Shown here: positions 6,041 through 28,828 of the stretch, in pieces
Position numbering within the stretch: the first letter of the stretch is position 1
How the letters are laid out: each line of letters begins with the position of its first letter
Source of the DNA: Saccoglossus kowalevskii
Taxonomy: Eukaryota > Hemichordata > Enteropneusta > Harrimaniidae
Length of the DNA stretch: 30,261 nucleotides
Assembly (NCBI RefSeq): GCF_000003605.2
Contig: NW_003151257.1
Span: 19,847 to 50,107 of the forward strand
Reading direction: 5' to 3'
Notes under the pieces: generated by a model
Told to the model about the DNA's origin: nothing
The model's input: only the letters and a program-made list of their open reading frames with translations
Databases searched by the model: none
Program-made: the position numbers and the translations under genes

Positions 6041-6231
6041 ATGTACACCTTAAAGATTTTAGGTTTTTTAATTTATTTGCTGGTGAATATTTCTGCAGTT
6101 GTGTCGGTCAGCGGTTCCAAGTCGTATGTGTGCCCGACACACTGTACATGTACGAACGAAGAGATAGTTTGCCAGGAGAAAGATACGATGTCTTACATCC
6201 CGGATATTAGGTCGAGCTCGGTCACTGAAGT
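6041..6231 (+). CDS. Trk-like receptor, coding exon 1: signal peptide and LRRNT cap
   Basis: Residues 1-64, the last codon being split. A hydrophobic stretch at about residues 4-23 (KILGFLIYLLVNISAVV) is a typical secretory signal peptide. Cysteines 31, 35, 37 and 44 follow the pattern C-x3-C-x-C-x6-C, the LRRNT cap of Trk and other extracellular LRR proteins. The motif is CPTHCTC. The exon ends in SVTEV, the position of the ITEI segment that leads into the first Trk LRR. The start ATG has A at -3, and an in-frame TAA lies at 6032-6034, so this is the first possible start in this exon. The donor GTAAGT begins at 6232. Reading through it hits an in-frame TAA at once (6233-6235), so intron retention would give only a 64-residue secreted stub. 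The intron is phase 2. Confidence 0.92.
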
Positions 6232-7160
6232 GTAAGTACTTTTATAATATCTATTCGTGAATATTTCGTCCTAATTAGTGGCAAATCAATGTTGTTAATT
6301 TGTAGCGGCGGCCATTTACAGTACAGCTAAATGCGAGTGTGACGGAAAAGCGCCGTTAAGTCCCTCCCTGAGATATGATGTCGTCGCTGCAGTAGAACAG
6401 CTCCTATGTTAGTGGGACAGTGCTGTTTTGAACCTGTGCTTCTGCGTTCGTACTTGGCAGCGACTAACAAAAAAAAACTGAGCCCAGCAAAGCTCCCTAT
6501 TATAATACAGAGCAGCTTTAACAATTCTGGTATCGTAGCTTTGTTTACAGAGATGCCCCCGACTATGAAACTGTGTTCAATCAACGAACAGTGCGCTTTT
6601 CAGTGTTGTATAGTATGCTTGGGTGAGCACCGAAGCGTCCGTTCAAACGTGGAACATATACACCAACGACAAGTCACCTCCAGTGCAAATGCAAATAAAT
6701 TAATGACATTTGTTTTACTGAGGAGCCGGGAATAATTTTACAGAACTCGAGAAGTTCGGTAGAACTCCTTCCGTGTTGTATAATCATACGTATTACGGCT
6801 GTATGGACGGAATTGAGGCGGGGGGGGGATACTTTCTCCATATAATTATTTCTGATGTGACTATCTGTTATCAACATCTACATCTACCTCATTTAATATA
6901 AACTCTCCACCCGTTAGCGGCAGCAATTATTGGGTTATTTGGTGTTTCTCGCTTGCTGTTGTCGTGCGTCCGACAGTGTGTTCATGTAAATATAGGAACG
7001 ACGTCGGAGTGTTGATTGAAACGCGCATTTGCAAGTCACGGATAATTGCGCGAATTTGAGATGTGATGCGACACACAACACGCGAGTGAATTTACGAAAG
7101 CGTTTAAGAATTGACAGGGGAAAACAACAAGCAAAATGGATGGCACCGGCTCTGATCCCG

Positions 7161-7173
7161 GTTACTAGGCAAC
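7161..7173. promoter_or_regulatory. RFX X-box-like site
   Basis: GTTACTAGGCAAC matches the X-box pattern RYYNYY-N-RRNRRC with a one-base spacer, about 0.9 kb into intron 1. RFX factors bind such sites in ciliary and neuronal genes. The loose pattern occurs by chance many times in 30 kb, so this is only a motif match. Confidence 0.3.
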
Positions 7174-8194
7174 CGCAACTGTTCATTTTCATCCCATTTT
7201 TATGGGGTTAATTGCGCAAGGAGCTGTTTGTCTGTTTCATTGGTGAAATTTGTTTTTAAAAGACGTTTTCATGTTCATGCCATTTAGCGCAACCCAATCC
7301 AGGCACTGCATTATTCGGCACTCTTCACAACTCGTGGTGGAATTTCATATTAAGCGGAATTATGCCGATTGTACTTATTAAGTATTTGGATCAAATTAAA
7401 ATGTATACGCCGTGTTCTTCCAAGGTCAGCGATATGCGACGCTTCGTTTCATTGACCAGCGCCGTGTTACATCGACTGTACACGTACACAGCGGGAGACA
7501 ACTTACAAAAATAGCAGTATTCGCTGGCACAAGCTGGATCAAGTCTCTCATTTTCTCCCTATCCACAACCACCCACGTGCAGTTAGGCGAGTCACGTTCT
7601 ATTGTCACCCACTCCATAGTGTTGAAATCGCAATGAATTGTTTAATGTGTAAAACCATTACTTTTTTTTTTTCAACTCCATGGTAACACATCTACAAAAT
7701 GAACACATTTCTCAGTACTATTGCCCTGTTCGTCATTTCATTAAAACTGTTATTATATCATTAACGTGGAACGGTCTCAGACTCAAACCACCGTTTAGAA
7801 TACCGTGACCATGGTGGTAACGACCGCTCTTTATCTCTATGTACGTGCTCGACTCGGCCTTGCAGATGAGTATTGTTGTCACCTATTTTTCTTGCGATTA
7901 TGTTAATGTGAAATTATTTATACAAATAATTAGAATCAATAAATACCACCGTTAACATGCCCCCCCTTCACCATTCAATTTTGCTTCTCCGCTGTGATTT
8001 TGAGCGATCCTGAATATCACCACTTATAAATAAATCGCGAAATTTAAACCAGACGAAAACGACTTCACTTTGGCCTGGCAAAGTATTTTCCGTTGTGTAC
8101 TGAATACTAAGAACTCTTTGCACGTCCTCATAATCCCGAGTTAAAATCCTGAGCCATCTTGATCAGCATGTATAGCAATACTCTATTCTTGCAA

Positions 8195-8215
8195 TGACGT
8201 CACTAGTTGACGTCA
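8195..8215. promoter_or_regulatory. Two perfect cAMP response elements
   Basis: TGACGTCA at 8195-8202 and again at 8208-8215, separated by CTAGT. Together they form an almost perfect palindrome. They lie 2 kb downstream of coding exon 1. CREB/ATF bZIP dimers bind this octamer. The pairing is very unlikely by chance, since under one copy of the octamer is expected in the whole window. Confidence 0.65.
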
Positions 8216-9118
8216 TGAAACATCCATATACGCATTAGGCAGGTATCACCGGCAACCGAGTTCAGCACCGACATCGATGTACAGATTGCTCTAAATATAT
8301 TTCCCACTCGTCCATTTTCGCTCTGTTTTACGCAGTTTTGCACTCTATCAAATTTCCCAGTCTGCGCTGTTTTAAAACTCGCTGCTTCGCTTGAATACTT
8401 GAAGGACTAAAATCGGTCAAAGTTCGACGACCTCGCGTAACACGTAGTTTATTTTGAATAGGCGATACGCCCGAGTCAAGTGTTCTGCTTCGCCTTTTAA
8501 ATAAAACATGTTTACTTTAACTGGGTTTCTCCTCAATTTTCAGCAACATGTGAAAATAGCTGCAAACAACATGCGTCGTCAGCACCTGTGAGCCTAAGGT
8601 AAAACGCCGTTAAACAAGGCACCGTTAAAATGGCGTAACTCTGTCAACGCTTTATCAATATGTCTCCAATTCAACAATCTCGAATTAACATGTTTTTCTA
8701 CCTCAGATGCTGGGTTGTCTGTTACGTAACAGACAGTGTGGCCTTGCATAATCCATTTATTAATGCCCGCATGCATGGCTTTTACAAACTAACTACAAAT
8801 GATTTTAAAGGTTTTTTTTTTTCAATTCAATTGGTCATCGACCTATTAATGCTAACTATTGTGATGTACTTGTAAGTTTGCCTTCCATTGTAGCGAGTCA
8901 AGGACAATAATTAAACTGGTCACATTTTAAAGTCTACGCTACGCTACGGTACGGCCATTGGGTTCTGTTGGGTTCCGAAGCCAATAAAAGGAGATGTTGG
9001 TTTCGTGCCTCATTTAAATTTTAAGGTCCATATACTCGTCAAACAAAACATTGAAGATTAGACAGAAAAAAATGACATGAACGATAATACAACAGGGATT
9101 TTTTTAAACAAGGGAACA

Positions 9119-9133
9119 GGGGCGTAGCGCCCC
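9119..9133. other. GC-rich hairpin in a possible transposon remnant
   Basis: GGGGCG / CGCCCC arms around TAG, in a locally GC-rich block (about 9110-9530) inside AT-rich intron. The GGGGCGTAGCGCCCC motif looks like a type seen in invertebrate repeat families, from memory only. I found no second copy in the window and no terminal repeats. Confidence 0.4.
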
Positions 9134-11295
9134 CATGCCATGGTCATGCGCCCGTTTACCCGGGGAGTAGATCCTCTGGCAACCATAAAGTTCTGATTGA
9201 CCAGGGATCATGGCCACAGTCTTCAACTGTGACCTGTCTGATAGTAATTTTGGCCCCAAGGAAGCCATAGAATGCTCCATTTTAACTTAGAATTATCAAA
9301 AACACCACACCCTGGTAGGGAGAACCCTATCTCCCCCACTTGGCGGTGCCGCTGAATTGCAATGCTCCCTCTTGCAGTTTTTTTTTCTAGAAAAAACCCT
9401 GATACAATGTATTCCTGGTTCGCAATAATAGAATACGGATAATGTGGAAGCTGCATGGTTGATCCGCCGGTACGTGCGGGGTGGGGGTGTCTGCATATGT
9501 CAAACAACCGAATTGTCTGAATCGGGGGAACCGTTGAATCTTATCATTCCCCAGAGAAGGCGTATGATCATTAGCACAGGTTTAACCACTGGTTTGTACT
9601 TAGATATCGCCTCGAGATTTGTTCTTCCCAATTACAGTCGTTAGAGTATATACCCGTCAATACTGTACCCATTGGCGGTTATTTTATGCAGTATCAAATT
9701 AAAATCTGAATAACCAAACATTTTCTGGGGGAAAGGGGCAAATTATATATTCTACCTACTAATAACTGATCGAGTTAAAGCGAACAAAAAAAATCATGAA
9801 CGAGATTATGAGATATCCACTATGTATGCAGGGTAATGGATGGACGTCTGTTGACATTATTTGTTTTTATTAAAACATATTTTTATACGAGCACATCGAG
9901 CTTGCCATATGGAAATTACCTTTATCAGTTTGTTTTCCGTAAAAGCCGTAAATTTCGTCGATTCGCATTAAATAGACTGACTACCATGGCGCATGAAAGC
10001 TGATCAGTGAAGAAAGATAATTTGATCTCCGTCGTTTTGGTTAACTGAATCCGTAATTTGTAACTCATCGCTTTCACCCTTTATTAAAATCGGATCCGAT
10101 GAGTGGTGTTATGCTGCGAGGATAGTCAATAGGATCACGTTCTGTATATGTGTGTTCGATTCGCCAGGAACTGAAATCATTAAAGTGTACCGATAGAATA
10201 ACAGACGCTCCGACTTACAGTACATTGGGCGCGACCACACTCCAACGTTTCATGTTTTCTGATAACACAAAATGAAGTGGTGTTGTATGTTTTCTCAGCC
10301 ACGGTGTTGCACAGTCCTTGATAATTGAACGGTAGAGAGAGGTCTCGCCGCTTGTGTGAACTTCAAATATGAGAAGTCTAAATTTTATTAAAAATGACTA
10401 GATGGTTTCGTAATTATCACCCTGGAACACGCTGTATGCAATTTCTGTGGTCTGATATTTCAAAAAATAATCTCAGGCAACTTATAAAAAATGAACTCAG
10501 TGGTGCCTTTAAGATGCGTAAACGGCTAATAAAAATAGACTCATAGCATTTATTCATAATATCCAGTCGATCAATTAATTTTATCAGCGCTGTGTCGATG
10601 CCCGCACGGCTGTTGGCTCTAACCGCTAGTGTATCTGGATAAAATGCGTAGGCGATTATAGGACGTGATCGACCACCGACTTTACTCAGAGACGTTCATC
10701 TGTAACAGTGGGACGAGCAAGGGATTATTCGGAGCGCAGACGCCACGCGAACATCGCGGGTGACCATTAGGTCACGGTGGTTGAAACGGATAGGTGGCAT
10801 GATCAAGTTTATTGATCGAGTTTGAACCGGCGAGAAAGCGCTCACAGTCAGATAATAAAAATCACCAATGGTTACACAAGAACGCAATCACGCGTGTCTC
10901 GGGTTATTTTATAATTATGTTGTCCATCCAATGAAATTGCGTCTGCGCAAATCTCGGCACTTTCTATAGGGCGACAAACGCGATTTCGTCTTGCCATATA
11001 AATAAAAGGATCTTTGAGTCTGATTTGAGTAATAACGAGTCTGTGGCACATGGCAGTGACTTCAATTTCCTTGATACTAATGCAGTATAAAATACGATAA
11101 ACGCGCGGAAATAAATCATTTTGTGCGTGTCAGTATGATTGGACGTGATATATTTTGTCGAAAGTCATCATCCAATCAGATAGTTTGTTCTTTATAGTTT
11201 GTTGCTGTGCGTGCTATAATAACTCGAACACCCCCAATATCAACCTGTCACGTGGTGACCTGGCCAGACGCATACATACTAGTGCATGTACTTTA

Positions 11296-11473
11296 TTATA
11301 GCTGGAATTAATTTTCGCTGAAAAGACTTTTTGGGTATTTTGTATGGAATTTATTTTCACTAATTTTTGACAAGTTGAATGTAAAATATAGGAATAAAGG
11401 TATATTCACTGGATTTTATTTTCACTGAATCAGCCCTTCAGCGAAAATAGCAAAAAGAAAATCCAAGCTATAA
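11296..11473. mobile_element. MITE-like element with compound terminal inverted repeats (178 bp)
   Basis: Left end TTATAGCTGGAATTAA then ATTTTCGCTGAA (to 11322). The right end is its inverse: TTCAGCGAAAAT (11437-11448), then ATCCAAGCTATAA (to 11473). The inner arms pair perfectly over 12 bp. The outer arms pair with one or two mismatches, and the right arm carries about 10 extra bases between the two blocks. Two further internal copies of a GGAATTTATTTTCACT-like motif occur at about 11346 and 11411. There is no coding capacity. The element ends in TATAGC, compatible with a TA target duplication, but the exact boundary is uncertain. Confidence 0.75.
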
Positions 11474-12955
11474 TTAAGTATTTTACATTATTTGATTTTA
11501 AGGCGAGGCGGATCGTACCATACGCGGGGATTGGGAACGAGCACAATAACAACACACACTGAAACGCAAGGTTCATAAGTAGACTCGTGAACTTGTGAAA
11601 AAAACATACGCTATAGCCTTCTGCCGCATGTTCTGGAGAAGACCCATCGCTTTAGCGTATTGCCAAATCGTGGGAATCAATGTAAACACTCAGCCCGAAC
11701 AGTCAGTGCAAATTTGGATGTATACTGCGACTGCCAATCAGTCTGAAAAAAAACATCACGTGCACGAGAAACCCCGCAAATACTAGTATTCATTTTCATA
11801 GTTGCTATAGGAAAAGTTCGATGCAGTGGGACGTTACGTGACCAGTTATCTGCCCACCTTCCAAATCCCCATTACACATCTCGCGTCGGTGTACTAACCC
11901 ATGTAGGCTGTACTCTAATCACATTCATCCATTCCTAAAATTACTAGTAATGGCTTAGAAAAGCATTAAACTGAATAATTTAATTATTTACATGTATATT
12001 GACAATGGACGCTAAAATGTCACGTGATATACTGATTACCATTCTGTTAGAAAATTGTCACCTTCGGTACACGTCCTAAATTACAGTTTGAATTGATATG
12101 GAACATTTAATGCAATAAATATACTAGTACACTTTTTTGGGGGGTTACTTCATCCACGCCATGCACGTTTTGAAACGAGCTGCTCAATGCGCGATCTTAA
12201 CAATCAACACGACAACCCAGACGGCTTCGATAAGTCACTCAGACACGCATACAGCGGAAATACCTAAGTACAGACTTACGTATGTTCACACGTCTTATGA
12301 GATCGCACAATGGCGATTGTTTTTACCCCCGGCCAAATTAATTCCAAAGTGGCGTGTATTACGTAAACGGGTTATTATGTATCCGTATCCGTTTCCCTAC
12401 ACAGTTTCCTAAGAAATAGTAAAGCAGTTTTATCGGACGCCAGATGTGATTTTTGCGTGATTATGTTACGTTTCGTCGATGCCAGATTTCTTGCCTTTGT
12501 TTTCATTTAGAAACAAAATGTCTAAGTATAACAACGTAATTATCGTTTCCAAATTGGGAGAAATGCTTCGGGCTGATCTAGCTTGTTGTAGACATTTTCA
12601 TAATCTGATTTTAAAATGTGTGTGTTTGCTCCCAGCAAAACGCGTGGATCTTTAAAGCTGAAAAAAAGTCATGATTATATTACTAACCAAATACTGACGA
12701 GGAGATACATGAATTAAACACGGTAACAGACTCGAAATAATAAAGATGATACAACAATAACAATAATCTTATTTGATATGAAATCGTGCAAATTTTGTGA
12801 TTGCATAGCTTGAAAGTTGGGAAATTGCCGGCTCGGTGAAGATGAAGCGTGCGTGATTCGCGGCTTCAGTCACGATTTGTCCTCGGCCGGAGGCTGTTAT
12901 TGTTTTCCCAGCAATCAGCGGAGTATTCATGGTAAGTTTATGTGGAACGGGTTAC

Positions 12956-13065
12956 ATAATATATAATATGATATAATATGATATAATATAATATAATATA
13001 ATATAATATAATATAATATAATATAATATAATATAATATAGTATAATATAGTATAATATAATATA
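12956..13065. repeat. (TATAA)n microsatellite, about 22 copies
   Basis: Nearly uninterrupted 5-bp repeat with a few G substitutions (TATAG, TATGA). The minus-strand frame through it is a run of YYIIL and is not a protein. Confidence 0.97.
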
Positions 13066-14384
13066 GGAGCATGATGTTAACATTTCTAAGTCACTCGCAC
13101 GCAATGTGCATTGTTCAAACACAAGGGTATTTATATTTATTAGAAATAAACAGAGAATCCCATTCGTTTTTCTCATGTCGGGTATATTATTGCATACACT
13201 GCTTTGTAACACACCTATTCATCATGGCGTCTTACGGTGCTGGCATTTATCCAGCTGTTTCCACCTCCATCTCTAACAGTGATCCATGTGAATTCAGCTG
13301 CTCGTAGTCAACATACTCTCTTTCTCCAAGTCCCCGGCATTGAAGGGTGCCCGCCCATAAAACACTGCGATGCTCACACTCGGCCGGAAAACACGTACTG
13401 CTGTGATTCTTGCTTTTCGCCTCTCGCGAGACTTGCCCGCGAAGCCGCGGCTGCTTCATTAGATATTACATTGACAACTTGATCAACGCGGCGCGGTATA
13501 CGCGAGCTATGATTTACTTTTAAAAATTGATGTAGGCATAAGAAATGGGCTTGTTGTCACTACATGGTAATGGAATAATAATGGCAAGAAACATATAATT
13601 ATGCTAAATATTCCTCTCATTCAAGTCCTAGCCGGTTTTGTGTTTTCTCTGTAATGCATAATTTATTTAGTTCAGGTATACCAGCGCACTTTTAATTAAA
13701 AAAAAAACGCACACAAACAAAGCAACTGGGCGTAGGGGTGTGGTAAGTGGATACGCACTACTTTTCGTTGAACGTGGGCTCGCTGGTATGGAACATAATT
13801 ACAACTGAGTTTTTGGTTGCTATCATATTTTTAACCTCATCTGTTGAGTCAAAATATGGACGAATATTGTGGCCTCAATGTTTTTTTTCCTTTTATTCTC
13901 GATCGACTTTGGAGTGGAGTATATACATATATATTTGGTGGGTCAATCGCAGTATTACATTTTGTTAGATCTGATCCCAATATATCAGATTTATACGCTC
14001 AATGGGGGCGTTGATTCTAATCCAACGTTTGAATATAGTGTTCCCCAGCGTCCTCGTGGGGTTCATTTTAATGTCACAACCACAGTCCCATTAGAGGAAC
14101 TATTTCATAACTAAAGAAATTCAACTTGAAAACTCGTCATTTTAACAATTAATGTGTATGATGGTGATACACTAGTGTGTCTGTGAAAACAAGATGTGAA
14201 TTGCATATTTGCAGAATCACCGAGTGGTGAATTTTAAATCAATAATAATTATCTTCGAAAGTTGGTGTGCAAGGTGGTCTTACAGTTCTGGTGAGGTGTT
14301 TTGCATCTCGTACAGGCTGGTATAAACGCATACTCTGTTTCTCTCCAAATTAAACTTCAACCATCTTGAACTACATGTACTCAC

Positions 14385-14417
14385 GGAGGTAGAAAAAGAG
14401 ATCTCTTTTCTACCTCC
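14385..14417. other. Near-perfect 33-nt inverted repeat
   Basis: The GGAGGTAGAAAAAGAGA arm pairs with TCTCTTTTCTACCTCC, with one bulged A and no loop to speak of. Related CATGGAGGTA decamers recur at 14823 and 17675, so it may be two head-to-head ends of a repeat family. Confidence 0.75.
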
Positions 14418-14859
14418 ATGATGTACTCGGTAAGCGTGCTTGTAAATACTGTGTATGTGTCAATTGGAAGATGATTTGCATATTTGCTTACATAATGTTG
14501 CTCTAATGTTAATCTTGTGATACAAGATGTGTATATGGTCTTTTTAGGTGTGATTTCGTTCACAGTTGGTTTTAACTTCGATCTTTCCAGGAGCTCTTTA
14601 TCATTGAGGGTGTCAGGAGGAGTGTCTAGAGTTAAGCAACTATGAGTTTTCGTCGTGTACTCTGGGCTACCTGGCTCTTTTTTTCTCAAAATGTTTTAAT
14701 TTTCAAACTTGGCGTTTATATATGAAACCTATAGGGACAATGAATCGATAACACAGTAATTGTTATCGTCGCTTTTTAGGTTCAATTTCGACTTAGTCGG
14801 CAGAGCGGAGCAGTTCATATATACATGGAGGTAAAAATGATGATATATACCAGTAACTG

Positions 14860-15145
14860 ATTGTCCGTCGTCGTTCGGCGTCAACTTTTACATTTTCGAC
14901 TTGTTCTAGAAAACGACCTCTCTCAGATTTGTTCATTTTGTGACGTTACCTTCAATTTTTTAATTTTACTGAACATTTTTGGTTAAAAAAAGCCATTTTT
15001 GACCTCTTCTTGAACATGGCAAGCCTCATTGCTTCTATATTTCATATGTGGACACTTTTGGTGAACCTCAGTCATATTTGTTCATTCTGTCAACAATAAG
15101 TTTAATTTTCTAATTTTGGTGAATAATTTTGGTAAAAATGTTCAA
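14860..15145. repeat. Diverged tandem duplication, period about 149 bp
   Basis: TTTGTTCATTTTGTGACG... followed by TTTTAATTTTACTGAACATT (from about 14928) is repeated in diverged form from about 15077 (ATTTGTTCATTCTGTCAAC..., TTTCTAATTTTGGTGAATAA). The left end contains CCGTCGTCGTTCGGCGTCAA. The whole looks like an old interspersed repeat, by general appearance only. Confidence 0.5.
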
Positions 15146-15747
15146 CTGTACAGCAGAGCTATATCACGTCAACAGGCTGCTTGTTTATTGTATTGCCAAT
15201 TATTGTTTCCTATGGCACAAGTTTATAGAATCTCTCGCGTGGTAATTTCGAGTTGGGCCACGATTTAAATAAGAATATATAAAATTGCCATGTCTAAGCC
15301 TAGCTGCTTTTTTTCAAGTTATCGCGCTTTGGGCGTAACTCTCGCGTGAGATGGTGTGACAATGAACGGCGCCCCCAGCCATCGTTATAGAAAACACGTT
15401 CGATAGCAGACCAGCCTCTTATGTTCTCACCCGTGGTACGCGATCCCAAATGCTAATATTGCAAGAATCATATTTATATTGTCCATGATCTCAGTAAACA
15501 CCTAGTAAAACGTACAATATATACCCTTTGCTTAAATGAACAAAATACTTTCTATTCAGTAAAGGTCGACAATTTGGGGGCAGAATTGAAAAATATTGCA
15601 CGGAAAATATCATGGCAAATGCCAGTACCAGAAAAACAATGCACATTTAAATCGCAGGGAAAAAATGTTTCCATAAAAACTACGCTACGCCTCTGGGTAA
15701 GTGGCGTTTATTCAATCAGAAACATCTTTCCAAGCTTTTCTCAGCCT

Positions 15748-15954
15748 GCATCCACAGTTTTTTTTCAAATTCAGCATCCACAGTTTTTTCAACTTGCATC
15801 CAATTTTTTTCAACAATGCATCGACAGATTTTTCACACAGCGTCCACAGTTTTCTCATCAGCATCCACATTTTTTTCAACATATGCGTCCACAGTTTTTT
15901 TTTTTCAAAATCACTGGCAGCATCCGCAGTATTTTTCAACATCTGTTTCCACAG
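15748..15954. repeat. Minisatellite of about 22 bp: GCATCCACAG plus poly-T
   Basis: Nine copies of GCATCCACAG (variants GCGTCC..., GCATCGACAG) start at 15748, 15774, 15796, 15818, 15840, 15861, 15885, 15920 and about 15945, each followed by 6-12 T and often CAAC. Two + frames and one - frame stay open across it because the unit lacks stops. The predicted proteins (FFQ.., HSFF..) are artefacts. Confidence 0.9.
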
Positions 15955-18288
15955 TTTTCCCAAAAAAATTCTCAAATTGGTTCAAAATTATTAAAATGAT
16001 TATTAAAAAAATCATAAAAGTAAGTAGGCTAAACGTTCGCACCCAACTTTCGGCAAAAAACATAATGGTCCCCAAAGGATTAAAATTAATTTTTACATTT
16101 TAAGACTGATATCAAGAAAGTACTTGATTAGCATTTGAATTTACTATTGACAATTCCACTATGGTATGAAAGCTATTCTCTGAATTGCTTATTGCGGGGT
16201 TGACACCCCCAGCCCCGCCCATGTGGTGTGGGCATTTTTAGTCGCTTTGGTAGTCGGAAATGATGCCTATGGTCAGTTGAAACATTCGTTATAATTATAG
16301 CATTTGTGGTTAACTTAATAAAATTAAACAAAGAATACACTTTGCATTTATAAATAGCATTTTTGAGATATTTCACCTGTTTTAAGTTCATCAATTCCGA
16401 TTGTTGCTCTTGTGGGCGAGCTGCCGGGTGTTCGCTATAATACTGCCGACCTTCAAATCTGTTTCATCTGCTTTTTATGTCTATTAACGGGCATTTGTTT
16501 TTTTCCACGTATTTGTTAAAATGCGAGGGTGACTATCGACAACGTCCGGCTTGGTTTTCATTTCGGCATAGCATAATCGCAGATACTTCCGGCTTTCAAA
16601 TACTGCATCGAGGTACATCAGGAGGTTTTAGCTTCTCTCTAGTCGCGTCATCATCCCACCGCCAAGGAGAGTCTTCATCTCTCGATCCCCGGTTGCCTGG
16701 TTACCGTGGCTGCCCACAGTTACCAATTTTCTCGAGAATTTTGATTTGTGGGCGTGAAACTATTCATGTCTCGTGTTACGGACGTATGAGCAGCAGAGTT
16801 TGCCATGGTAACCGTCGCTTCTTGGAAGTCTTACTTTTGTACGATAATTTGACGTTCATTGTAGTTGTTTAAGCATATTCGTTACAATGTCATCATTAGG
16901 TGTCCATGATATTACGAAGAAACGAAGAATATACGACATCTAATTGCGAACCGTATAACCGAGGGCAAATAATTAATACAGAAATTGATTGTACAGAATG
17001 TATATTGCACCACATCAACAACCGACTTTGATGCCATGTGACCTTTTTTTAACGTTTGTCACCTGTAAAAGTGATACTAAACGCATCGAGCTAGTGCGCA
17101 TTGTATTATGGGAAGGGAAAGACCATTGAATATTATGTCATTTAATTGTTAGATTTTTTTTTAATGTGTATATTTGGCTAGATTTCAAGGAATATATCCA
17201 TTTTTAGACACACATATACAACATGCAAAAATAATTAAGATTCTTCGCTCGGGTTAATTTTACCCTCATAAATCGTCTCACCGATACACTTTTTTCAGCA
17301 GTGCCTAGTAAGGTTCATTGTTAACTGCATCATCGTCCCAACTTTCGTAAGATAACCTGCTCACATGGCATGAGCACACATAAAATCAACGTGTGTTGTG
17401 TGTTCGCATATACAATGTAATCGCGTATCATGACGCTTCTGTTGGAGATACACTTCTAATAGAACAAATACGGTATATTGATTTATTCCCAATATACGTG
17501 CTTGCCATGTAAGAGACTGTCATCCAAATCAGTGAACAGCTTCCAAACGCGTAATTATGACGTGTGCCAACCATGGTGCTGATTAATGCGCCGTTTCCCC
17601 GGGAAAGTAAGGCTCTACATAACATGAACTGTCAAGCCACAACTACATTACGTAAATAGTATTACATGTATATCATGGAGGTATATATACACCCGCTAGG
17701 ACGGGAAAAGTTTAATGGAATCAGGTTTTTAATTTAGTTATTGAGGTACAATAAAAAACAAGGTCATTACGATTCCGCGATAGCATATTTTATTATAGAA
17801 TGCGCACACGGGAAATTTGAACTACTCCAGCTACAGTAAACTACACTTCCGACAAACATCTATTAAAATCAAATTGCGCATATAGAGAATGCGAGTACAC
17901 GGAAGATAATAGCGTGTGACAGGATGCAGATCAGTGGTTATTATGTGAATTTCTAGCAATTGGATTTACCAACACGCCGGGATCTTTTCTTGTTGACAGG
18001 AATCATTGTCGATTGGTCCTGTTAGACGACCTGCTATGAGATTATTTCGTGTTTTGGACACAATCTTTTCAGCGGATGTGTCATCGCAAAGTATGATAAT
18101 TCGGCGACTTGTCAGACGGATCGTAGCATTTAATTTATGCCCGATCACCGTATTAGTTGTTTGCATAGGATAGAGGAAAGAAACCCTTATAAAGAATGAC
18201 CTGGTTTCATATATATAATACTAATATACGTATATCGGATTAGCTGTAATTCGTCTTTCATTTGATCTAATCCGTAGAATGTTACCGC

Positions 18289-18313
18289 AATAATAATAAT
18301 AATAATAATAATA
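18289..18313. repeat. (AAT)8 microsatellite
   Basis: Perfect AAT repeat of about 24 bp running into an AT-rich tail. Confidence 0.95.
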
Positions 18314-18424
18314 TATTATATTTATTATCTCTCAAGTATGAGACAGTCAATGTTATTGGCCAAAACAGTCACGTGATCGTATGATTGGACATTGAATTTG
18401 GCTTGTCTCCCTGTGTATTTCTCG

Positions 18425-18590
18425 CCTCTGACGTAATGTGTGTTACTGGCCTCTAATATCATAACGCTTACTGTCTCTTTAGGGTGTAATACAACAGTTA
18501 TTGCCTCTGACGTAATGTGTGTTACTGGTCTCTGATATCATAACGCTTACTGTCTCTTTAGGGGTAATACAACAGTTATTGCCTCTGACT
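18425..18590. repeat. Tandem duplication, 79-bp and 78-bp units plus partial third
   Basis: Units begin CCTCTGACGTAATGTGTGTT at 18425 and 18504. A third copy at 18582 stops after CCTCTGACTTC. Units 1 and 2 differ by two substitutions and one deleted T (TTTAGGGTGTAAT versus TTTAGGGGTAAT), so the duplication is recent. The overlapping minus-strand frame repeats RGNNCCITP for this reason. Confidence 0.93.
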
Positions 18591-19049
18591 TCGGTCGATG
18601 ACAACGAGATCAATAACTGTAATTTTGCTATAATTGTCAGTGAGTGTTTTGCGAATAATGTTTGTGAAAAGAAAAAACTTTTTCGGTTGTAATGTTCGTG
18701 ATGAAACGAATACTGTGATACAACAACAGCGTTGAGCAGTCCCTCGCCTACGTAACCCCACGTAGTATGTAAAGATAGGCCTTTCCTACTCATTTACATA
18801 TATAGAACGTACCTTAAACACATTTCATTTCAAGTAGTCATACTATTTCCATGAAGTGGACGGACGACACCGTCAGATGGTCATACACAATATAAAAACA
18901 TTGTTTTCGCATTTCACCGACGTTTGAGATTAGTGAGACCGTCTCGCGCGCGTTTCGAAAAATTGGTATGTTGAATTTGTCCACAATTAAGAGAACGCTT
19001 TTACATCTTTAAGAGTTGATCACTGTTTAATCTGTTTTCAACTTTTTGA

Positions 19050-19290
19050 GCATAACGGAACACTTGTGAATTCTTGAGAGCAACATCGAACACTTACCAG
19101 TGATATTTTCAACACAATTATAAGGAAACAATTGTGAATTCCTGGGGCAAATAATTGAGCACTATTACGAAACGCTGTTGTGAAGATAATAAGGTAACAC
19201 TTGTAAATCTCTGATTGCAATCGTAGAACGCGGTTCAATACTTGTGAATAATAAGGAAGCAATTGTAAAATGACATAATACGGGAACACG
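19050..19290. repeat. Degenerate minisatellite related to the 1-580 array
   Basis: Recurring GAACACTTGTGAATTC, GGAAACAATTGTGAATTCC, GGTAACACTTGTAAATC and GGAAGCAATTGTAAAATG segments, irregularly spaced. The GGAAACARTTG core is the same as in the array at the left edge, suggesting a shared family, although copies are much decayed. Confidence 0.55.
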
Positions 19291-19537
19291 TGTCTGAACT
19301 TAGTAATCGAACATTCCTTCCCTCTGAAGTCCACTTTGCATCATGGGTAATCCAAGAAGCATTTATTTTCGCAAAGCGTCACACGTGCGTCAGTAAATCA
19401 CACATAAATGTTGAGAACTTCATTTCTATTTATTGAATATTGTGAATGAATGGTCCTGTCACTGGGGTGATACGAATGCTTCAGGGGCCTGAAAGCTTAA
19501 TGATGGAGTGTTTAACATCCTGAACGTTTCGTGTCAA

Positions 19538-19550
19538 AGGTCAAAGGTTG
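19538..19550 (+). promoter_or_regulatory. DR1 nuclear-receptor half-site pair
   Basis: AGGTCAAAGGTTG: one perfect AGGTCA and one AGGTTG half-site spaced by a single A, as bound by RXR, HNF4 or COUP-TF type receptors. Motif match only. Confidence 0.3.
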
Positions 19551-19586
19551 GAAGTTTGCCAGAAGGATTTCAATTACTCATTGAGA

Positions 19587-19604
19587 GTGTGTGTGTGTGT
19601 GTGT
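19587..19604. repeat. (GT)9 microsatellite
   Basis: Short perfect GT dinucleotide run. Confidence 0.9.
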
Positions 19605-20826
19605 TTGTTTGCGCGTAGATTGGTTTACTTACTCCTCAGTAATTTTGCGACGATTTGCTATTTGTCTGGGATATAACAAACATTAATGTCTTCACCACAA
19701 GAAAAAATAACACGGTCAAATTGCCACTAAGACGAGTTTGTTTGCAGTCTTGTGATATAGAAGGACAATCATTTTCATATTTATTATCTTTTTTTATTTA
19801 TCCGTCTGATAAAGAAATGATATATCTAAAGTCATCATCCTAAGCTGCCCGATAATAATTTGCGTTACCATGACGATGAATTCGCATTGATGCGAAATGA
19901 TTCGAGAGATGCGACTTAACGATTCTTTAATCTTGCTTTTTGCAGTGTGATGATAAAACTATTTTTATTTTCCGGTCCTTGCTCTGAATGAGGGGGGGGG
20001 CAAGTTAAAATTTATGCATGAGTATTGACTGCCTTTACATGTTTGACATAATATCATCAGTATTTTATATCCATCATTTTAGGGGTGACATTGGCGCCAT
20101 ATTTGCCAGCTTTAGTGGCTAAATAAGTTTTTTAGGTGGGTTGTCATGTAAAATAATAAAAATGGCGACGGTTCTTATCAGCTGTCCCATAATTACAATG
20201 GATTTCTTATATGATTGTAATTGTATATTTCTATATGAATAAAAAAATCGCTCATGGAGTCGACGAATGGAAACTTTTTTACTTTTCGGTAGAAATGTCA
20301 ACTGGTAAATGAGATTTTATCTGTTATGCTTAGGTGATATATTTTTTGATACACATTTTCATCCTATTTATATACGTATATTCGTAGTAGACACATCCTA
20401 ATCGTATATCAGTGTATAGACATTAGTGTGGTGACTACTATGTTGAATTGAACAAACTGCCAAGTGCCAACATCACTGAACTGACTGCTCACGATGTTTC
20501 AAGTACATTTTGACCTAAGTTATTGCCAATCAGGCTCAAACACAATTGCGCGGTACAATTCCACTTTTATGACTGGTTCGAGGCTGAGACGATCTATCTA
20601 GGACCGCCTACCTGTCTTGTATACCCGTGAGAAGTTATTAAATGAAAAAAAAACTTAAAGCGGTGGAAATTCAGTCCTGATGTCCAAAACATTCACATAA
20701 CAACGCATGCCAAAAAATGCAAAGGTTCATGGGTAGAGGCGCTTGTTCGTAAACAACGACTGTGCAAGTGACGACTCCCCCACTTGACAGAACATATTTT
20801 GTTCATTCTTTTTTTTTTTTTTACAG

Positions 20827-20901
20827 TGTTATAGAAAACCAAAGAGACCTTCTTGAAATTAACGAGACTTCGCTGCAGTACCTACTACGCCTCGAGAAAC
20901 T
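20827..20901 (+). CDS. Trk-like receptor, coding exon 2: first leucine-rich repeat
   Basis: A 75-nt exon with acceptor TTTTTTTTTTTTTTACAG and donor GTAAGT, phase 2 at both ends. It completes V64 and encodes VIENQRDLLEINETSLQYLL followed by RLEK, with L89 split. The ENQ..L..IN pattern lines up with the ANQ..L..IN segment of vertebrate Trk LRR1 without gaps, and the exon has the same 25-codon length. NET (residues 76-78) is an N-glycosylation sequon. Leucines at 72, 73, 80, 83, 84, 86 and 89 give the LRR spacing. The exon is far too short to be called as an ORF in a simple scan and is recognised only by joining it to its neighbours. Confidence 0.9.
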
Positions 20902-21862
20902 GTAAGTTTCTCATCATATATCATGTCTTGTGTCTTGTCATATTATATCTTCTAATATTTCGTGTCCTATCATATCATGCCATACTAGTATATGATTCTA
21001 AGTCCTATATATTATATGTCACCATGTATATATCATATCACCAATTTCAACTGATCTTATCTTAATATCAGTCGTAAAATGTGATAATTAATATTAATCA
21101 TTTTGGGACCACGATGTTTTCCGGGTAAGAACGTCAGTTTTCCCATTTTGGGGGGATGTTTCTATAATTATTTTGACAGTTTTGAACCAAATTTATATCT
21201 TTCTATTTTGTCCAAACATTAAAGTCGCAATATATCGTCAATTTAACCATATTATAAACTTGGCTGTTGAACAGTTCTTCGTGGTAGGATGTATTTGAAC
21301 AATTCGTTTTATCGAAATTAGTGTTGATAGTCATTTAAAAAATAGTATTCTTCAGAAATTCCCAATAATTCGGGACACTGCTCTTCTTACGTGATTTTTC
21401 ACATTAAGTATCCAAACGACATTTTAAGATACCATTTTTTTTCACCATAGGAACCAATGTAAATGACACAAAAAATCGCCATTTTCATGGGGTCTTTACA
21501 CATTTTTTTGTGCGAAAAGTAGTTTGATGACCATATTATTCGGATTATATGAGCATCTGCATATATCAAATCCATATAACAAAGGTCAAAGTAGTCTAGT
21601 TTTAATGACAGCCAACTACATTAACGGCAAATATTTCAGACTTGAAAATAATTATCCATACACTGAATTTTAGAATAACCCTAACCCTAAAACTCTGACA
21701 TATCCGCTGACGATGTACAACGCCTGGCTTATATATATAATGTGTTTCCTGCAACTTTGAATTCAGTTGTTTCCGTAAGAGCGTACTAGCAGAGTACTAT
21801 GGTTTGTTTGTCACGTTCATGTTCATGTTCACCGTCTTTTAACCTCTCTCTTACATCCTCAG
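20902..21862 (+). other. Intron 2 of the Trk-like gene (961 bp)
   Basis: Phase 2, GTAAGT to CCTCAG. The first 160 bp are low-complexity sequence of the TCATATCATGTC type. A two-and-a-half unit telomere-like tract, TAACCCTAACCCTAA, lies at 21676-21690. No other feature is seen. Confidence 0.88.
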
Positions 21863-21934
21863 GACGATCGTTAATTGCAAAGTAAAAAAGATAACTCCAC
21901 GAGCGTTTTACGGTAACCGAAACCTGCATTTCAT
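21863..21934 (+). CDS. Trk-like receptor, coding exon 3: second leucine-rich repeat
   Basis: A 72-nt exon with acceptor CTTACATCCTCAG (ending 21862) and donor GTAAGT at 21935, phase 2 at both ends. It encodes the end of L89, then TIVNCKVKKITPRAFYGNRN and LHFI, with I113 split. This corresponds gap-free to the Trk segment LTIV..GL..V...AF..N.NL..I, again with an equal length of 24 codons. Cys94 sits where vertebrate Trks have Ser, in the N-C position that many LRRs occupy with cysteine, so it may be buried rather than disulphide bonded. Neighbouring introns are 961 bp (upstream) and 3487 bp (downstream). Confidence 0.9.
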
Positions 21935-22133
21935 GTAAGTGACGTGACGTTAATTTCTTTTCGCTATACCACGTGCCTGTCGCTGTCAATTGGATTCTAT
22001 TTTTGTAATCCCTTCTCGAAATAAAACGGCTTAAATTGACCCAAATTGGATATGCAAGTGCATAGAGAAAATACGATCTCTGTCAACGTTCCATTATACG
22101 ATGTATCTAATAGTACGCCACTGATATGTAAAT

Positions 22134-22646
22134 GCTTTGTCACTGAATCCAATATGAAATGCACATTTTAGTCAAATGTTATGCAAATGTTTGTCAATGA
22201 TATGCAAGTGATATTCAGTGAAACTGCTACCCCGCAGTGTAATGAATTCGTGACAACATCTTACCAGACACTATTGCCTCTTTTGCTTTGTCACTGAATC
22301 CAATATGAAATGCACATTTTAGTCAAATGTTATGCAAATGTTTGTAAATGATATGCAAGTGATATTCAGTGAAACTGCTACCCCGCAGTGTAATGAATTC
22401 GTGACAACATCTTACCAGACACTATTGCCTCTTTTGCTTTGTCACTGAATCCAATATGAAATGCACATTTTAGTCAAATGTTATGCAAATGTTTGTAAAT
22501 GATATGCAAGTGATATTCAGTGAAACTGCTACCCCGCAGTGTAATGAATTCGTGACAACATCTTACCAGACTCTATTGTCTATTTTGCTTTGTCACTAAA
22601 TCCAATATAAAATGATTATTTTAGTCAAATGATTTGCAAATATAGA
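22134..22646. repeat. Satellite array, 151-bp unit, three copies plus a diverged partial fourth
   Basis: Units start GCTTTGTCACTGAATCC at 22134, 22285 and 22436. The fourth start at 22587 reads GCTTTGTCACTAAATCC and decays after about 60 bp. Copies 1-3 are nearly identical; the visible change is TTTGTCAATG to TTTGTAAATG. Each unit holds the octamer ATGCAAAT (22181, 22332, 22483) and an inverted repeat TCACTGAAT...ATTCAGTGA (22140-22148 and 22213-22221 in unit 1). Confidence 0.97.
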
Positions 22647-22938
22647 ATAATTTAAATGGGTATCGCCCGTTCATAGTGGGCAAATTCGTTTATTTTAATC
22701 TCGTAAAAGTAAAATTAAATAAAATTTAAAAAATGATAACGTTTCGGCTCGGTTAGCCTGCTTTTCTAAATTCAAAAAAACAAATCAGGTTAAAAAAACG
22801 GTAAAGGACAGTAAGTCCCCAGTAGAAGGATGCTTATTTATTACTTTCCTTATTTTGAAAATGAAAAATTAACAAGAACATGTAATTTTAATATTGATGT
22901 TGGGTACTTCAAATTGATGAATTTACTACAGTACGCAT

Positions 22939-23066
22939 TGACACTGATTAGCCTGACAATGTCGCGTGAGTTGCGCCCTCCTCGATGCTCCAAACCCAGT
23001 GAGGTATGATGCCGTTCGGCCGGCGAAGGCGCCACTCACGCCTACATGTCAGGCTATGGCACTGAT
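22939..23066. mobile_element. Foldback MITE (108 bp) with terminal inverted repeats and 10-bp target-site duplication
   Basis: The element spans 22949-23056. Its left terminus TAGCCTGACA is the exact inverse of the right terminus TGTCAGGCTA, and pairing continues inward in imperfect form (GCGTGAGTTGCGCC against GGCGCCACTCACGC). It is flanked directly by TGACACTGAT (22939-22948) and TGGCACTGAT (23057-23066), a 10-bp repeat with one mismatch. It is much GC-richer than its surroundings. It has no coding capacity. TSDs of 9-10 bp are typical of Mutator-like elements, but the superfamily is an inference. Confidence 0.85.
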
Positions 23067-24314
23067 CTTTTTGATGCGCATGCGTGGAAGCGATTTTTAT
23101 TTTTGATCGAACCAGTACTTTTGTGTGTGCCCCAAAAGCAATGTATTCATTATAAGCAATTTGATCATCAACATGCTTTATCAAACAACAATATTACAAA
23201 AAATATGTTTTCGTCCATATTGGATCCTCGTGAATAGCACTACAATGTATCGCAGTGGCATGAATACACGCCTGAAATTACAATCAGAAAAGATCGCATG
23301 TCTCCAATGACGTGGCGTAGAAAATACTGTAACACAATGTTAGCAACAAAGAGGGCGTGTGTGTTTACTTCATATGCAAAATAGCTGGACTTGAACTCTG
23401 GTCTCCCAATAGACAGGATGAATGATAGAAATTGATCAATTTACAAACTCTTGTCTGTAAATTTCCGTCATTTCCTTTGACACACTATCATTAAGGAATT
23501 GAATGAGAGAGGGCTTCCTCGTGTAGACCGGGTCATCTCCAAATTCGTTGCTAAATGCGGTATATAATTTATATTTCAAAAATAATTTCCCCGTATGCAT
23601 AATCACCTTGGCAGTTGCCCTGAGCGTGTTTACTTCATGCGTTCTATTTATCAGTATTAAATACGTTTTTCCCATTCATACGTACATGGACTCCGGTCAA
23701 AACGTACTTAATTAATTCTACTTTCCAGCAGAGAAAGAAAAATCGATTCAGAGATTCGCACGCAAGGTTTTGACCCCTCCCCCTAATTTGTATATTTTAC
23801 TCTTTCACTAGTCCGAGTGAATACTAGTTCGTTTATGAAATCGATCTAATAGTCGCGAGCTGCTCTATATTCAGTATTTTCAGCAAGTATATATTTTCCC
23901 GCTGATGTCTTGTTATAATTTTATACATATCGCCCGGAGGCTTTCAATACTTATAATGATAATAATATTGATGACAATCCTGCGGATAAAATTCTAATAT
24001 TTAATCTGCCACGATAAACTCCTTGCCGCTTCATCAATTTGAACCGCATCCTATTATACTGTGCAAACATGACGTTCTATATTTGCCGCGGTGGGTTACA
24101 TCATAACCTCGGGGGGGGGGGGCTCCGTACACGTCATAATGCTTGAACGAATATCTCCTAATATCCAGCGCTTATTCTATACCCGCAACAAGATAATATT
24201 AATATCGACCAATTCTGTCGCCAGAATCCGGAAGTTAATATTAATGCTACGACAAATATGGCCTACACTTCAACTTCATTTGTAATTTGCATGAATACAT
24301 TCAAACTCGCCCTT

Positions 24315-24510
24315 TTAAAGGACGACTAATAGTCGATTATGTGTTTTTCAATAAAACGCTTGAACTTTCGCTCGTTCTTAAAGCGCGGTGGTCGTCGCGC
24401 AGCGCGTGTTCGAATTTTATGTAAATAAACAATGTATTTTACACGCGTTGTATACGTCACTATGAGTCCCATATCGAACAGGACGCAGCACGACGACTGC
24501 CGCCCTTTAA
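24315..24510. mobile_element. Dispersed repeat copy B, possibly a TTAA-flanked MITE
   Basis: The core 24408-24458 matches copy A at 2715-2758. The larger block is bracketed by TTAA (24315-24318 and 24507-24510). Its ends read AGGACGAC and, inverted, AGGGCGGC, identical in six of eight bases. A palindrome CGACTAATAGTCG sits at 24323-24335. TTAA duplication is the hallmark of piggyBac-type elements. Boundaries and class are tentative, since copy A lacks recognisable ends. Confidence 0.45.
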
Positions 24511-25421
24511 CTTCGCTCGCAAAATCTTGGCTTCTTTGTTGTCGTCTTTTCCAATTTTAAATCACCTTGATTATATACGTTATACAAAGTACACAAAGGC
24601 TGGGGCTTTTACAACGTATTACATTTTAACAATGAAGGCTAGTAACCCCAGCTTGCAACTAATCAAATATTGTACAGTAACGCCTATTTATCAATCTTCC
24701 TACAGTTAGGTCGTTTTTTTTCTTTCCCATCCGAATCGCGGTCGCGTATGATAATCGCGCACTTGAATTGCCGTACAGTGGAGTACAAAACGCATATTAT
24801 GCAGCAAATCGCTTAATTAATAAGCAGGATGTGTGTTTGTAAAAGCATTCAGGCCTCATGATGTACATATCCTGTTGCCGAAAATTGTATTTTATTCATT
24901 CCATTTTGACGTACATGACAAAGATGTCCGCTTGGCACCGGGTTCAAAAACCGGGCAACTGAACGTAGAAAATATTCACAGAAACATTAAGGTCACATCT
25001 CCCGTAAATTAATTAGCCTATTCTCATTAGTTTTGTAAATGTTCCTTCTTTGATCTTTCCTCTTTGAGTGTTGGACTGATACGTCCGTTAAGGTTCTGTC
25101 CACTTCTGTTCATTTGGCTTGAGATTTAAATATGTATTACCACACGTGTGTTATTACTTCGACCCATCGGGAACTATTAACTCCATTAAGCACCATCTGG
25201 GACGGAAGTAGGTGCACGATAAATACACAAATGACGCGCGTTCATTACCATATTAAACTAGTGCGTTGCTTTGAAATCTTGGACATGTGCCTGTGTTCTC
25301 TTCTCCGCTTCACTAGACATGCATTATCAATTTATTTTCTTCTGTGATTTTGTAATGCCATGTTTAACAAGAACACTCAAAACTATTTTTAACTATTTTT
25401 TCACTTTGTTTTTTTTTACAG

Positions 25422-25490
25422 TGATTTACAGAATAACGATATTGATAGATTAAGTTGGGAGCCGTTTGATGGATTAAATATCTCGCAGTT
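25422..25490 (+). CDS. Trk-like receptor, coding exon 4: third leucine-rich repeat
   Basis: A 69-nt exon with a strong polypyrimidine tract and acceptor TTTTTTTTTACAG (ending 25421), and donor GTAAGT at 25491, phase 2 at both ends. It completes I113 and encodes DLQNNDIDRLSWEPFDGLNI followed by SQ, with codon 136 split as TT and so Leu or Phe. DLQNNDI is a textbook LRR strand (LxLxxNxI). The exon matches the Trk repeat of the form INF..N.L..L....F..L.L.EL in length (23 codons) and in key positions. NIS (residues 132-134) is a glycosylation sequon. The next exon should open with a residue completing Leu and then the LRRCT cap. It is not found in the remaining 4.8 kb. Confidence 0.91.
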
Positions 25491-27306
25491 GTAAGTATAT
25501 TGGAATGTTCACAATATATTTGTAGATGAATCCACGATATCACCTTACCATATCTTGGCAAACACCTCGTTTATACTTGATTAGTGTTATATATGTCTAT
25601 GGCCACAGTTTCTAACCACATCTCTAGGTGGCTGATACCGCAAAAGTAACGTCCCCTGCATTCCAGAGTCCATATCAAAGTCAATTTATCGAGTGAACAG
25701 AATCCGGTTTTCCGAACATCACTTGTGCATGTATTCCCATGGGCTCTCGAGCACTATCGTCCATGATTTATTCAGTATCAGCTGGCATTGGTTTTTCAAA
25801 GCTTGTGCTGCCCGTGTCCCTTGTGGTCACTTGCGATAACAAATATTCAGTATCACTGGCGGAATTTAATGCTGGTATAACGTATTTTCTTAATCGTGGT
25901 GGTTTTAGTAAACTTCGCATATATTACAGCTCATGGTGTCTTGTTGGCCAACAACCCTTAATTTTACAAATCTGCCAGTTCCTAACGTTTTGAAATACTC
26001 GTCAGCCACATACATACAAGTGCTTCAACTTAACTGACTGAGTCCGCTGACCCGGTTATACCGTCTCCATACTGTCATAATATTAGCGTTCTACTCTGGA
26101 TGTCACTCTGAAATTATACCTGCGTTTCCTTAACATTTCTGAAACAAAGATGGGAATTAATATGTTACACGTGAAATTAAATCGAAATTTAACATCGCAT
26201 CTGTCTGCCACTTTCCTTCATTGATTTAATATCATTTTTTGTGGTTAGCAACTGAAAAAAGTGTATTTTTATCTGTAGTATCGTTGTAATCATTACGAAT
26301 ATAATGCGTTCTGCTAACACCGGTCTATGTGCCAAGATGTGACTATTATGTTACATGTTTATATCATTTTAGTGTGAAATGAGTGGTACATAAAATATTA
26401 TTTTACCTCATGACAGCCAATCAGACTCGCGCATTACAGGTAGACATACTAGTATTCCTGCTACCTGCTGACATATTCGCATGTCTGCCTCCATCCGGGT
26501 ACCTTCCTCCCGAATTTACCTGATTTCCGCCAATAAATTGTCGAAGAAACACAATATAATGCGCTATATTCATTGAAATAACTAATTTGCTTTCATTATT
26601 TGACTATTTTACTGGAGAGAAAACTAGGGAATTTTTAAAGATTTAGTCGCGTTTGTCATGAGTTTCGCCAGCCCGCTCGGCTACGCGCTTTGAGACATTC
26701 AATCTGCGGCTGCGCAACTCGTCTCTCTAACAATAGTAAGTCGTGAACTTGCCGTGGACGGCATCGATGTGTTTTTGTTACGTATTTTGTGTATTTTGAT
26801 AGTATGTCTACAATGTATTTGTTGAAAGAGAATTGTATTGACATAAGCCGTGTTGCGTACTGCTGCGCACAGAATGGCGCCGTGTGTGTTTGTAAAAATT
26901 AATTCTTCGTCAGACTGAAGCTGCTGAAATTAGGTTTATAAAACCATGTAGGTGAAAAAGGCGTCAATGAAAAAACTCTATAAAATTAAATCACTGCTTT
27001 TGGATTCTTTGCTTACATGCATTCAGCTCTTCGAGGATGACCTGCATGGAATATTGTCACGATTAAGTGTCACAATTTCCGTTTTAAGGTTTATTCGGTG
27101 TAATAATAATTACAAATGTTCACCACAACATGTTTATAATGTTAATCATTCTGGACTATCTAATGTATTGGAGAAAAGTGATAAACTACTTTCACCTCTC
27201 ACTTTAATCAGTTATTATTAAAAAGTATCACAGTCGTCATGTTTTGTTCAAATCCCTTTGAAATCCGCGCCATAAAGTTGGTATTTTAACTTGATCGTTG
27301 CGTACT

Positions 27307-27322
27307 AGAATACTAGTATTCT
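27307..27322. other. 16-bp perfect palindrome
   Basis: AGAATACTAGTATTCT reads the same on both strands. The TACTAGTA core recurs in the window (for example 11781 and 26450), so this is probably sequence-composition habit or a repeat fragment. Confidence 0.6.
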
Positions 27323-28018
27323 CAGATTCCGCAGCTGGCGGTGATGTTACGGGTGCGTAATGCAGCAGCCTCCACTCTATATACAAGCTATAACCTTTTT
27401 ATCTGTAATCATTAAACGAGTAAATGAGCGTGTTTTATCAATAACGCCGTTTATTGGACCCTACTGTTCATAATAATCTTGGTCATTTAGCTTTGATTTG
27501 TTTTTACGGCCAATGTCGATATAAGGCCTTCTTCCTTGAACTTGTAATAACCTGGGCTTTACTGGTCACTCGCTCCGTGCGATATAGCCTATTAAATCTC
27601 AGGTTTATGACCATAAATACAGCCGTTTTATCTCACTTCACCAATTTGCTTGAATAAAATGGCCACAACTTCCGTGCAGTATAAGTTTTCATTTCCGAAG
27701 AGCTGAGAAAGGGAATAAGCATAGAAACACGATGATTAAATCTGTCAACGGAAGCATAATTTGTCTTCGTTTAGTGATTTTCCCTGAGCTTGTACCTATT
27801 TATAGTGCGACCTACGTCCAGTCATGCGCGTTTAGATTGGCCTATCTACTTCACTTTCAATTATTTGTTTGTCACATTTCATGATATAGGTATTACTGGC
27901 GACCGAAAGGAATTTTGGCTAAACGCACGTTTATTAGAATTCACCTAAAACAACAAACATGTAAAACACTCTGTACAGGCTACTAAATTCCCCTTTGAGC
28001 AGATGATTGATTATACGT

Positions 28019-28026
28019 TGACGTCA
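28019..28026. promoter_or_regulatory. Perfect cAMP response element
   Basis: TGACGTCA, the third perfect copy in the window. It lies 60-120 bp left of the E-box inverted repeat. Confidence 0.4.
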
Positions 28027-28083
28027 TAACAACCGATGGCACTTAACCATTAAACGATATTCGTGAAAATACACGGCCACTCG

Positions 28084-28141
28084 AACATCACGTGGTATCG
28101 GTTCAGCCAATGGCAGCAGCTTGGTGTGATCACGTGATGTT
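28084..28141. promoter_or_regulatory. Paired E-boxes in an 11-bp inverted repeat with CCAAT between
   Basis: AACATCACGTG (28084-28094) and CACGTGATGTT (28131-28141) are exact inverses, with GCCAATGG between them and a GC-richer stretch to the right. CACGTG is bound by USF, TFE/MITF or Myc-type bHLH factors. It could be an intronic enhancer or promoter. Confidence 0.45.
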
Positions 28142-28808: not shown

Positions 28809-28828
28809 TTTGCATATCATATGCAAAT
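28809..28828. promoter_or_regulatory. POU-type palindrome containing an octamer
   Basis: TTTGCATAT-C-ATATGCAAA is a perfect 9-bp inverted repeat, and its right half gives ATGCAAAT (28821-28828), the octamer bound by POU-domain factors. Motif match only. Confidence 0.45.

What the first reader, a model, noticed from the sequence alone, without database searches (positions are those of the whole stretch)
6041..25490. Trk-like receptor with one-LRR-per-exon architecture and uniform phase-2 GTAAGT introns
Exons of 75, 72 and 69 nt each encode one leucine-rich repeat, and every junction is phase 2 with an identical donor hexamer. As I recall the vertebrate Trk genes, the LRR block has the same 25-, 24- and 23-residue modules, which would mean that this exon structure predates the split of the lineages. 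The uniform phase would let single repeats be skipped or duplicated in frame, so LRR-deletion isoforms like those reported for vertebrate Trks are possible here.
Basis: partly seen in the sequence, partly recalled or inferred. Interest (0 to 1): 0.7.

Follow-up and report, generated by a model that had tools for sequence, protein, structure and literature searches.

The report
First exons of an animal Trk receptor
The stretch holds the first four coding exons of what is very probably an animal nerve-growth-factor-type (Trk) receptor gene, cut in the places known from human; this shared layout was already reported in 2009, so it is a sound but ordinary find.

Summary
Four exons (6041-6231, 20827-20901, 21863-21934, 25422-25490; 191, 75, 72 and 69 nt) join in frame into 135 codons plus two bases. 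All four donors are GTAAGT and every exon ends in phase 2. The product looks like a signal peptide, an N-terminal cysteine cap and three leucine-rich repeats. Its best match among solved structures is the neurotrophin receptor TrkC, one stretch over residues 31-132, E 2.2e-15. A human TrkA/B/C profile ranks the four exon segments first among 1416 six-frame segments. Human NTRK1 exon 2 is c.213-287 (75 nt, phase 2 at both ends) and exons 3+4 are c.288-428 (141 nt = 72+69).

The reading as a Trk gene with old exon structure is supported, but not new: Wilson 2009 gives the same domain layout for the first five Trk exons in Daphnia, amphioxus and vertebrates. GTAAGT is the ordinary donor consensus (recalled). 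Skipping exons 2-4 keeps the frame; such isoforms are reported in rat TrkA but were not detected in human. Whether this gene makes them is untested. The C-terminal cap, Ig domains and kinase were not found in the window; the species is unknown.

The parts
6041..6231 (+). Trk exon 1: start codon, hydrophobic signal-peptide-like stretch (by eye, no predictor run), N-terminal cysteine cap (CPTHCTC...C), ends phase 2 in GT|gtaagt
   Evidence: top hit of the human Trk profile (14.8 bits)
6232..20826 (+). Intron 1, 14595 nt, GTAAGT...TTTTTTACAG
   Evidence: no further Trk-like exon recognised in it
20827..20901 (+). Trk exon 2, 75 nt, first LRR module (VIENQRDLLEINETSLQYLLRLEKL)
   Evidence: (6.5 bits)
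20902..21862 (+). Intron 2, 961 nt
21863..21934 (+). Trk exon 3, 72 nt, second LRR module (TIVNCKVKKITPRAFYGNRNLHFI)
   Evidence: (9.8 bits)
21935..25421 (+). Intron 3, 3487 nt; holds a 151-bp tandem repeat array
25422..25490 (+). Trk exon 4, 69 nt, third LRR module (DLQNNDIDRLSWEPFDGLNISQ, then TT|)
   Evidence: (7.3 bits)
25491..30261 (+). Start of intron 4, at least 4771 nt; no exon for the C-terminal cysteine cap recognised before the window ends

Best explanation
This is the 5' coding part of an animal Trk-family neurotrophin receptor gene. [quoted passage not shown] The introns sit at the Trk positions, each splitting in phase 2 the hydrophobic codon that ends a module. In the finished receptor this block would form the outermost LRR domain ahead of two Ig domains, a membrane helix and a tyrosine kinase; those parts are inferred and were not found in the window. 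Shown here: exons, frames, splice signals and similarity to the Trk ectodomain. Inferred: the downstream domains, ligand binding and kinase signalling. Possible but untested: isoforms lacking one or more LRR exons.
For: Best PDB hit of the 135-residue product is TrkC, E 2.2e-15, with one stretch of 58.5 bits over residues 31-132; the best single stretch printed for the runners-up was 26.0 bits for LGR4 and 12.5 for LRIG1 (60 of 162 matches shown, 4 alignments printed). A profile of human TrkA/B/C gives 70.4 bits over residues 29-134 of the joined product, and its four best hits among 1416 six-frame segments are the four exon segments. The collinear four-hit sum of 26.9 compares with at most 18.9 in 100 shuffles. 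The junctions fall on the same residues as in TrkA: TEL|YIENQ, RNL|TIVKS, SRL|NLSFN and QEL|VLSGN against TEV|VIENQ, EKL|TIVNC, HFI|DLQNN and the end of exon 4 (the third TrkA position uses the recalled c.359). Human NTRK1 exon 2 is c.213-287 and exon 4 ends at c.428 (passages of PMC10689924 and PMC13372274). The domain-to-exon layout equals that stated for Daphnia, amphioxus and vertebrate Trk (section 20 of PMC2772990).
Against: For the whole product LRIG1 follows TrkC closely by total score (E 5e-14, a sum of six weak stretches), and TrkA itself reaches only E 2.5e-07. With the three LRRs alone (72 residues) TrkC is sixth: LRIG1 leads with 53.3 bits against 41.0, although LRIG1's total is a sum of seven stretches with a best of 14.3 bits, while TrkC has one stretch that passes on its own. 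No LRRCT exon, Ig domain or kinase was found in the window. Pfam places only LRR_8 above its cut-off; LRRNT is below it (14.9 against 25.8 bits). tblastn of single Trks is weak. There is no transcript evidence.
Confidence: 0.94

Rival explanations
1. Another extracellular LRR receptor (LRIG, LGR, Slit or similar) whose first LRR exons happen to look Trk-like.
For: For the LRR block alone, LRIG1, LRRC15, the acid-labile subunit and LGR5 outscore TrkC in total bits. One-LRR-per-exon, phase-2 genes occur in several LRR families (recalled, not tested).
Against: The whole product hits TrkC first, in one stretch across the cysteine cap and all three repeats. The 75-72-69 series and the junction residues fit Trk.
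Confidence: 0.04
2. A Trk-related receptor that keeps the LRR block but has an altered remainder, such as Lymnaea LTrk, which lacks the two C2-type Ig domains, or a truncated Trk without kinase. This is a sub-case of the main explanation, so its odds overlap with it.
For: Only the LRR block was found in the window. Lymnaea LTrk is described so in PMC2772990 (passages).
Against: Nothing in the window argues for it; it is simply not excluded.
Confidence: 0.15
3. A pseudogene or partial duplicate of a Trk gene.
For: The rest of the gene is not seen.
Against: Four exons with open frames, consensus splice sites, a start codon behind an in-frame stop, and no internal stop.
Confidence: 0.02

Closest known systems
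Human NTRK1 (TrkA) exons 1-4
   Same: Junctions at the same residues and phase 2; exon 2 is c.213-287 (75 nt) and exons 3+4 are c.288-428 (141 nt), as here.
   Different: Human exon 1 has 212 coding nt (from c.213-1G>A), here 191. Intron 1 here is 14.6 kb. The N-cap reads CPDACC in TrkA and CPTHCTC here, which is closer to TrkB and TrkC (TrkB and human TrkC letters recalled).
Daphnia pulex Trk (Dappu-Trk) and amphioxus Trk
   Same: First exon for signal peptide and N-terminal cysteines, LRRs over exons II-IV, C-terminal cysteines in exon V (PMC2772990 section 20).
   Different: Their sequences, exon lengths and phases were not available here (the figure is not held; the word phase does not occur in the text). 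The paper counts two LRRs in Daphnia Trk. The downstream part of the window's gene is unknown.
Rat TrkA L0/L1 and TrkB LRR-deletion isoforms
   Same: L0 and L1 lack exons 2-4 and 2-3; the same skips are in frame in the window's gene up to exon 4.
   Different: No evidence of skipping in this gene. L0 and L1 were not detected in human TRKA.

Membership tests
Trk neurotrophin receptors | N-terminal cysteine cap followed by three LRR modules of 25, 24 and 23 residues | tested here: met
   Pfam's LRRNT model itself stays below its cut-off
Trk neurotrophin receptors | Sequence similarity to Trk ectodomains in one continuous stretch | tested here: met
   TrkC E 2.2e-15; TrkA/B/C profile 70.4 bits
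Trk neurotrophin receptors | Intron positions and phases as in vertebrate Trk genes | tested here: met
   NTRK1 c.213, c.287 and c.428, mapped; c.359 is recalled. NTRK2 and NTRK3 not checked.
Trk neurotrophin receptors | C-terminal cysteine cap (LRRCT) | tested here: inconclusive
   Not found in 25491-30261; expected in the next exon, which may lie beyond the window
Trk neurotrophin receptors | Two C2-type Ig domains, transmembrane helix | not testable with these tools
   Expected beyond the window; the genome search machine did not answer
Trk neurotrophin receptors | Trk-type tyrosine kinase domain | not testable with these tools
   Expected beyond the window; same reason
Other LRR receptors (LRIG, LGR, Slit) | Better match than Trk over cap plus repeats | tested here: not met
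   TrkC is first for the whole product, although LRIG1 and four other chains lead on total score for the LRR block alone

The most novel reading that the evidence does not exclude
The three in-frame LRR exons are used as cassette exons in this animal too, so that LRR-deleted Trk isoforms, known to me only from vertebrate Trks, would be an ancient way of tuning ligand binding rather than a rodent or vertebrate oddity.
Probability: 0.1. Interest if true: 0.45.

Novelty: new member of a known kind. Interest (0 to 1): 0.15.

Why it matters
It adds one more animal gene to the evidence that the Trk LRR block and its exon cuts are an old inheritance. It also corrects the emphasis: the shared layout of these exons has been in print since 2009, and the uniform donor hexamer means little by itself. 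The open part, whether LRR-skipping isoforms exist outside vertebrates, can be tested with ordinary RNA reads.

Tried and rejected
Duplicate or alternative LRR exons: 504 open phase 2-2 candidates of 60-90 nt on both strands were screened with a loose LRR pattern. It listed 11: exon 3, exon 4, a shorter form of exon 4, and 8 others, none with a GTAAGT donor or (by eye) a pyrimidine tract. The pattern missed exon 2, so it is not sensitive.

C-terminal cap exon: a motif scan gave six matches, none of LRRCT form by eye. Downstream of exon 4 the Trk profile gave 10 + strand hits; the two in the C-terminal part of the profile scored 1.8 and 0.6 bits, which is noise.

Other genes: ten open frames picked from the list (a part of that list) gave no Pfam match above a curated cut-off; 3 of 10 had weak matches below it. 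Rfam at gathering threshold and the tRNA scan found nothing (the latter with a bacterial code setting).

The idea that the GTAAGT donors are special was rejected: it is the metazoan donor consensus (recalled).

Papers on phase-2 LRR exons in other receptor families: two searches gave nothing usable (one paper's passages seen), so the statement that such genes occur is recalled. A search for LRR-lacking Trk isoforms in invertebrates listed 8 of 9 papers, none with that subject in its title or the start of its abstract; of these only PMC2772990 was opened, for other questions. A search for TrkA exon skipping with all six terms found none.

No structure prediction was run.

Full report
What is there. 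Each is followed by GTAAGT, and exons 2 to 4 are preceded by a pyrimidine-rich tract ending in AG. Joined, they give 407 nt, which is 135 codons without a stop plus two bases; every exon ends in phase 2. An in-frame TAA starts 9 nt before the ATG. The introns are 14595, 961 and 3487 nt long (from the coordinates).

What it encodes. The product starts with a hydrophobic stretch that looks like a signal peptide (by eye), then a CPxxCxC cysteine cap, then three leucine-rich repeats. Pfam recognises LRR_8 (56.4 bits against a cut-off of 27), and LRRNT only below its cut-off. Against PDB sequences the best hit is the NT-3 receptor TrkC (E 2.2e-15), one stretch over residues 31-132; LRIG1 follows at 5e-14 by adding weak stretches, and TrkA stands at 2.5e-07. 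A profile built from the human TrkA/B/C N-terminal regions (TrkB and TrkC from recall) scores 70.4 bits on the joined product and has the four exon segments as its four best hits among 1416 six-frame segments. With a profile made only from TrkA and chicken TrkC letters confirmed or printed by PDB searches, single exons are weak (9.9, 8.7, 4.9 and 3.4 bits; ranks 1, 2, 4 and 8), and one shuffle gave a single hit of 10.7. The best collinear sum, 26.9, equals the sum of the four exons and exceeds the best in 100 dinucleotide shuffles (maximum 18.9). tblastn with single Trks does not set the exons clearly apart (best E 0.006). The three repeats alone score higher in total against LRIG1 and four other chains than against TrkC; the alignments printed show such totals as sums of weak stretches, while TrkC has one stretch that passes on its own.

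Exon structure against known Trk genes. In the alignment with human TrkA the window's junctions fall on the same residues. Published variants in NTRK1 place the start of exon 2 at c.213 (c.213-1G>A, passages of PMC10689924), its end at c.287 (passages of PMC11116696, PMC13372274 and PMC10689924) and the end of exon 4 at c.428, with exon 5 as c.429-574 (PMC13372274). Human exon 2 is thus 75 nt, with phase 2 at both ends, and exons 3 plus 4 are 141 nt ending in phase 2, the same as 72 plus 69 here. The split between exons 3 and 4 at c.359 is recalled. Wilson 2009 (PMC2772990; [quoted passage not shown] Exon lengths and phases are not in the text seen there.

Skipping. The four exons end in GT, CT, AT and TT, so any junction codon is NTN: a hydrophobic residue and never a stop. 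All combinations of exon 1 with exons 2-4 in order (8 of 8 examined) stay in phase 2 without a stop; the join to exon 5 could not be examined. Precedents are rat TrkA L1 (exons 2-3 missing) and L0 (exons 2-4 missing). A study of human TRKA did not detect them and suggested that they might be rodent-specific (passages of PMC4652384). TrkB variants lacking LRR motifs are cited in PMC2772990 as unable to bind TrkB ligands. No RNA data for this species could be consulted.

Limits. The window stops at least 4771 nt into intron 4. No C-terminal cap, Ig or kinase exon was found in it. The genome search did not answer in six tries, so neither the species nor the rest of the gene could be established.

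Verdict. A real and probably functional start of a Trk gene, with a conserved and already described exon layout. Low novelty.

Noticed in passing
22133-22641: Tandem array of a 151-bp unit, 3.4 copies, 96% matches, inside intron 3.
   Followed up: no
23-518: Degenerate minisatellite, about 20 copies of a 25-bp unit GTTGCAATGTTGATAGGGAAACATG, 68% matches.
   Followed up: no
3066-3301: Degenerate tandem repeat with periods of about 14-15 and 29 bp (ATGATTGGCTGTGCG), upstream of the gene.
   Followed up: no
15736-15900: Degenerate repeat of a unit like TTTTTTCAACTTGCATCCACAG inside intron 1; it makes open frames of 180 and 150 codons that look like repeat, not gene.
   Followed up: no
18424-18589: About two copies of a 79-bp unit, 96% matches, inside intron 1.
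   Followed up: no
12961-13065: ATATA pentanucleotide array of about 21 copies inside intron 1.
   Followed up: no
6230-6231, 20900-20901, 21933-21934, 25489-25490: Each exon ends in NT before a phase-2 intron, so any exon join yields a hydrophobic residue and no stop; this may be a general reason why LRR exons tolerate skipping.
   Followed up: partly
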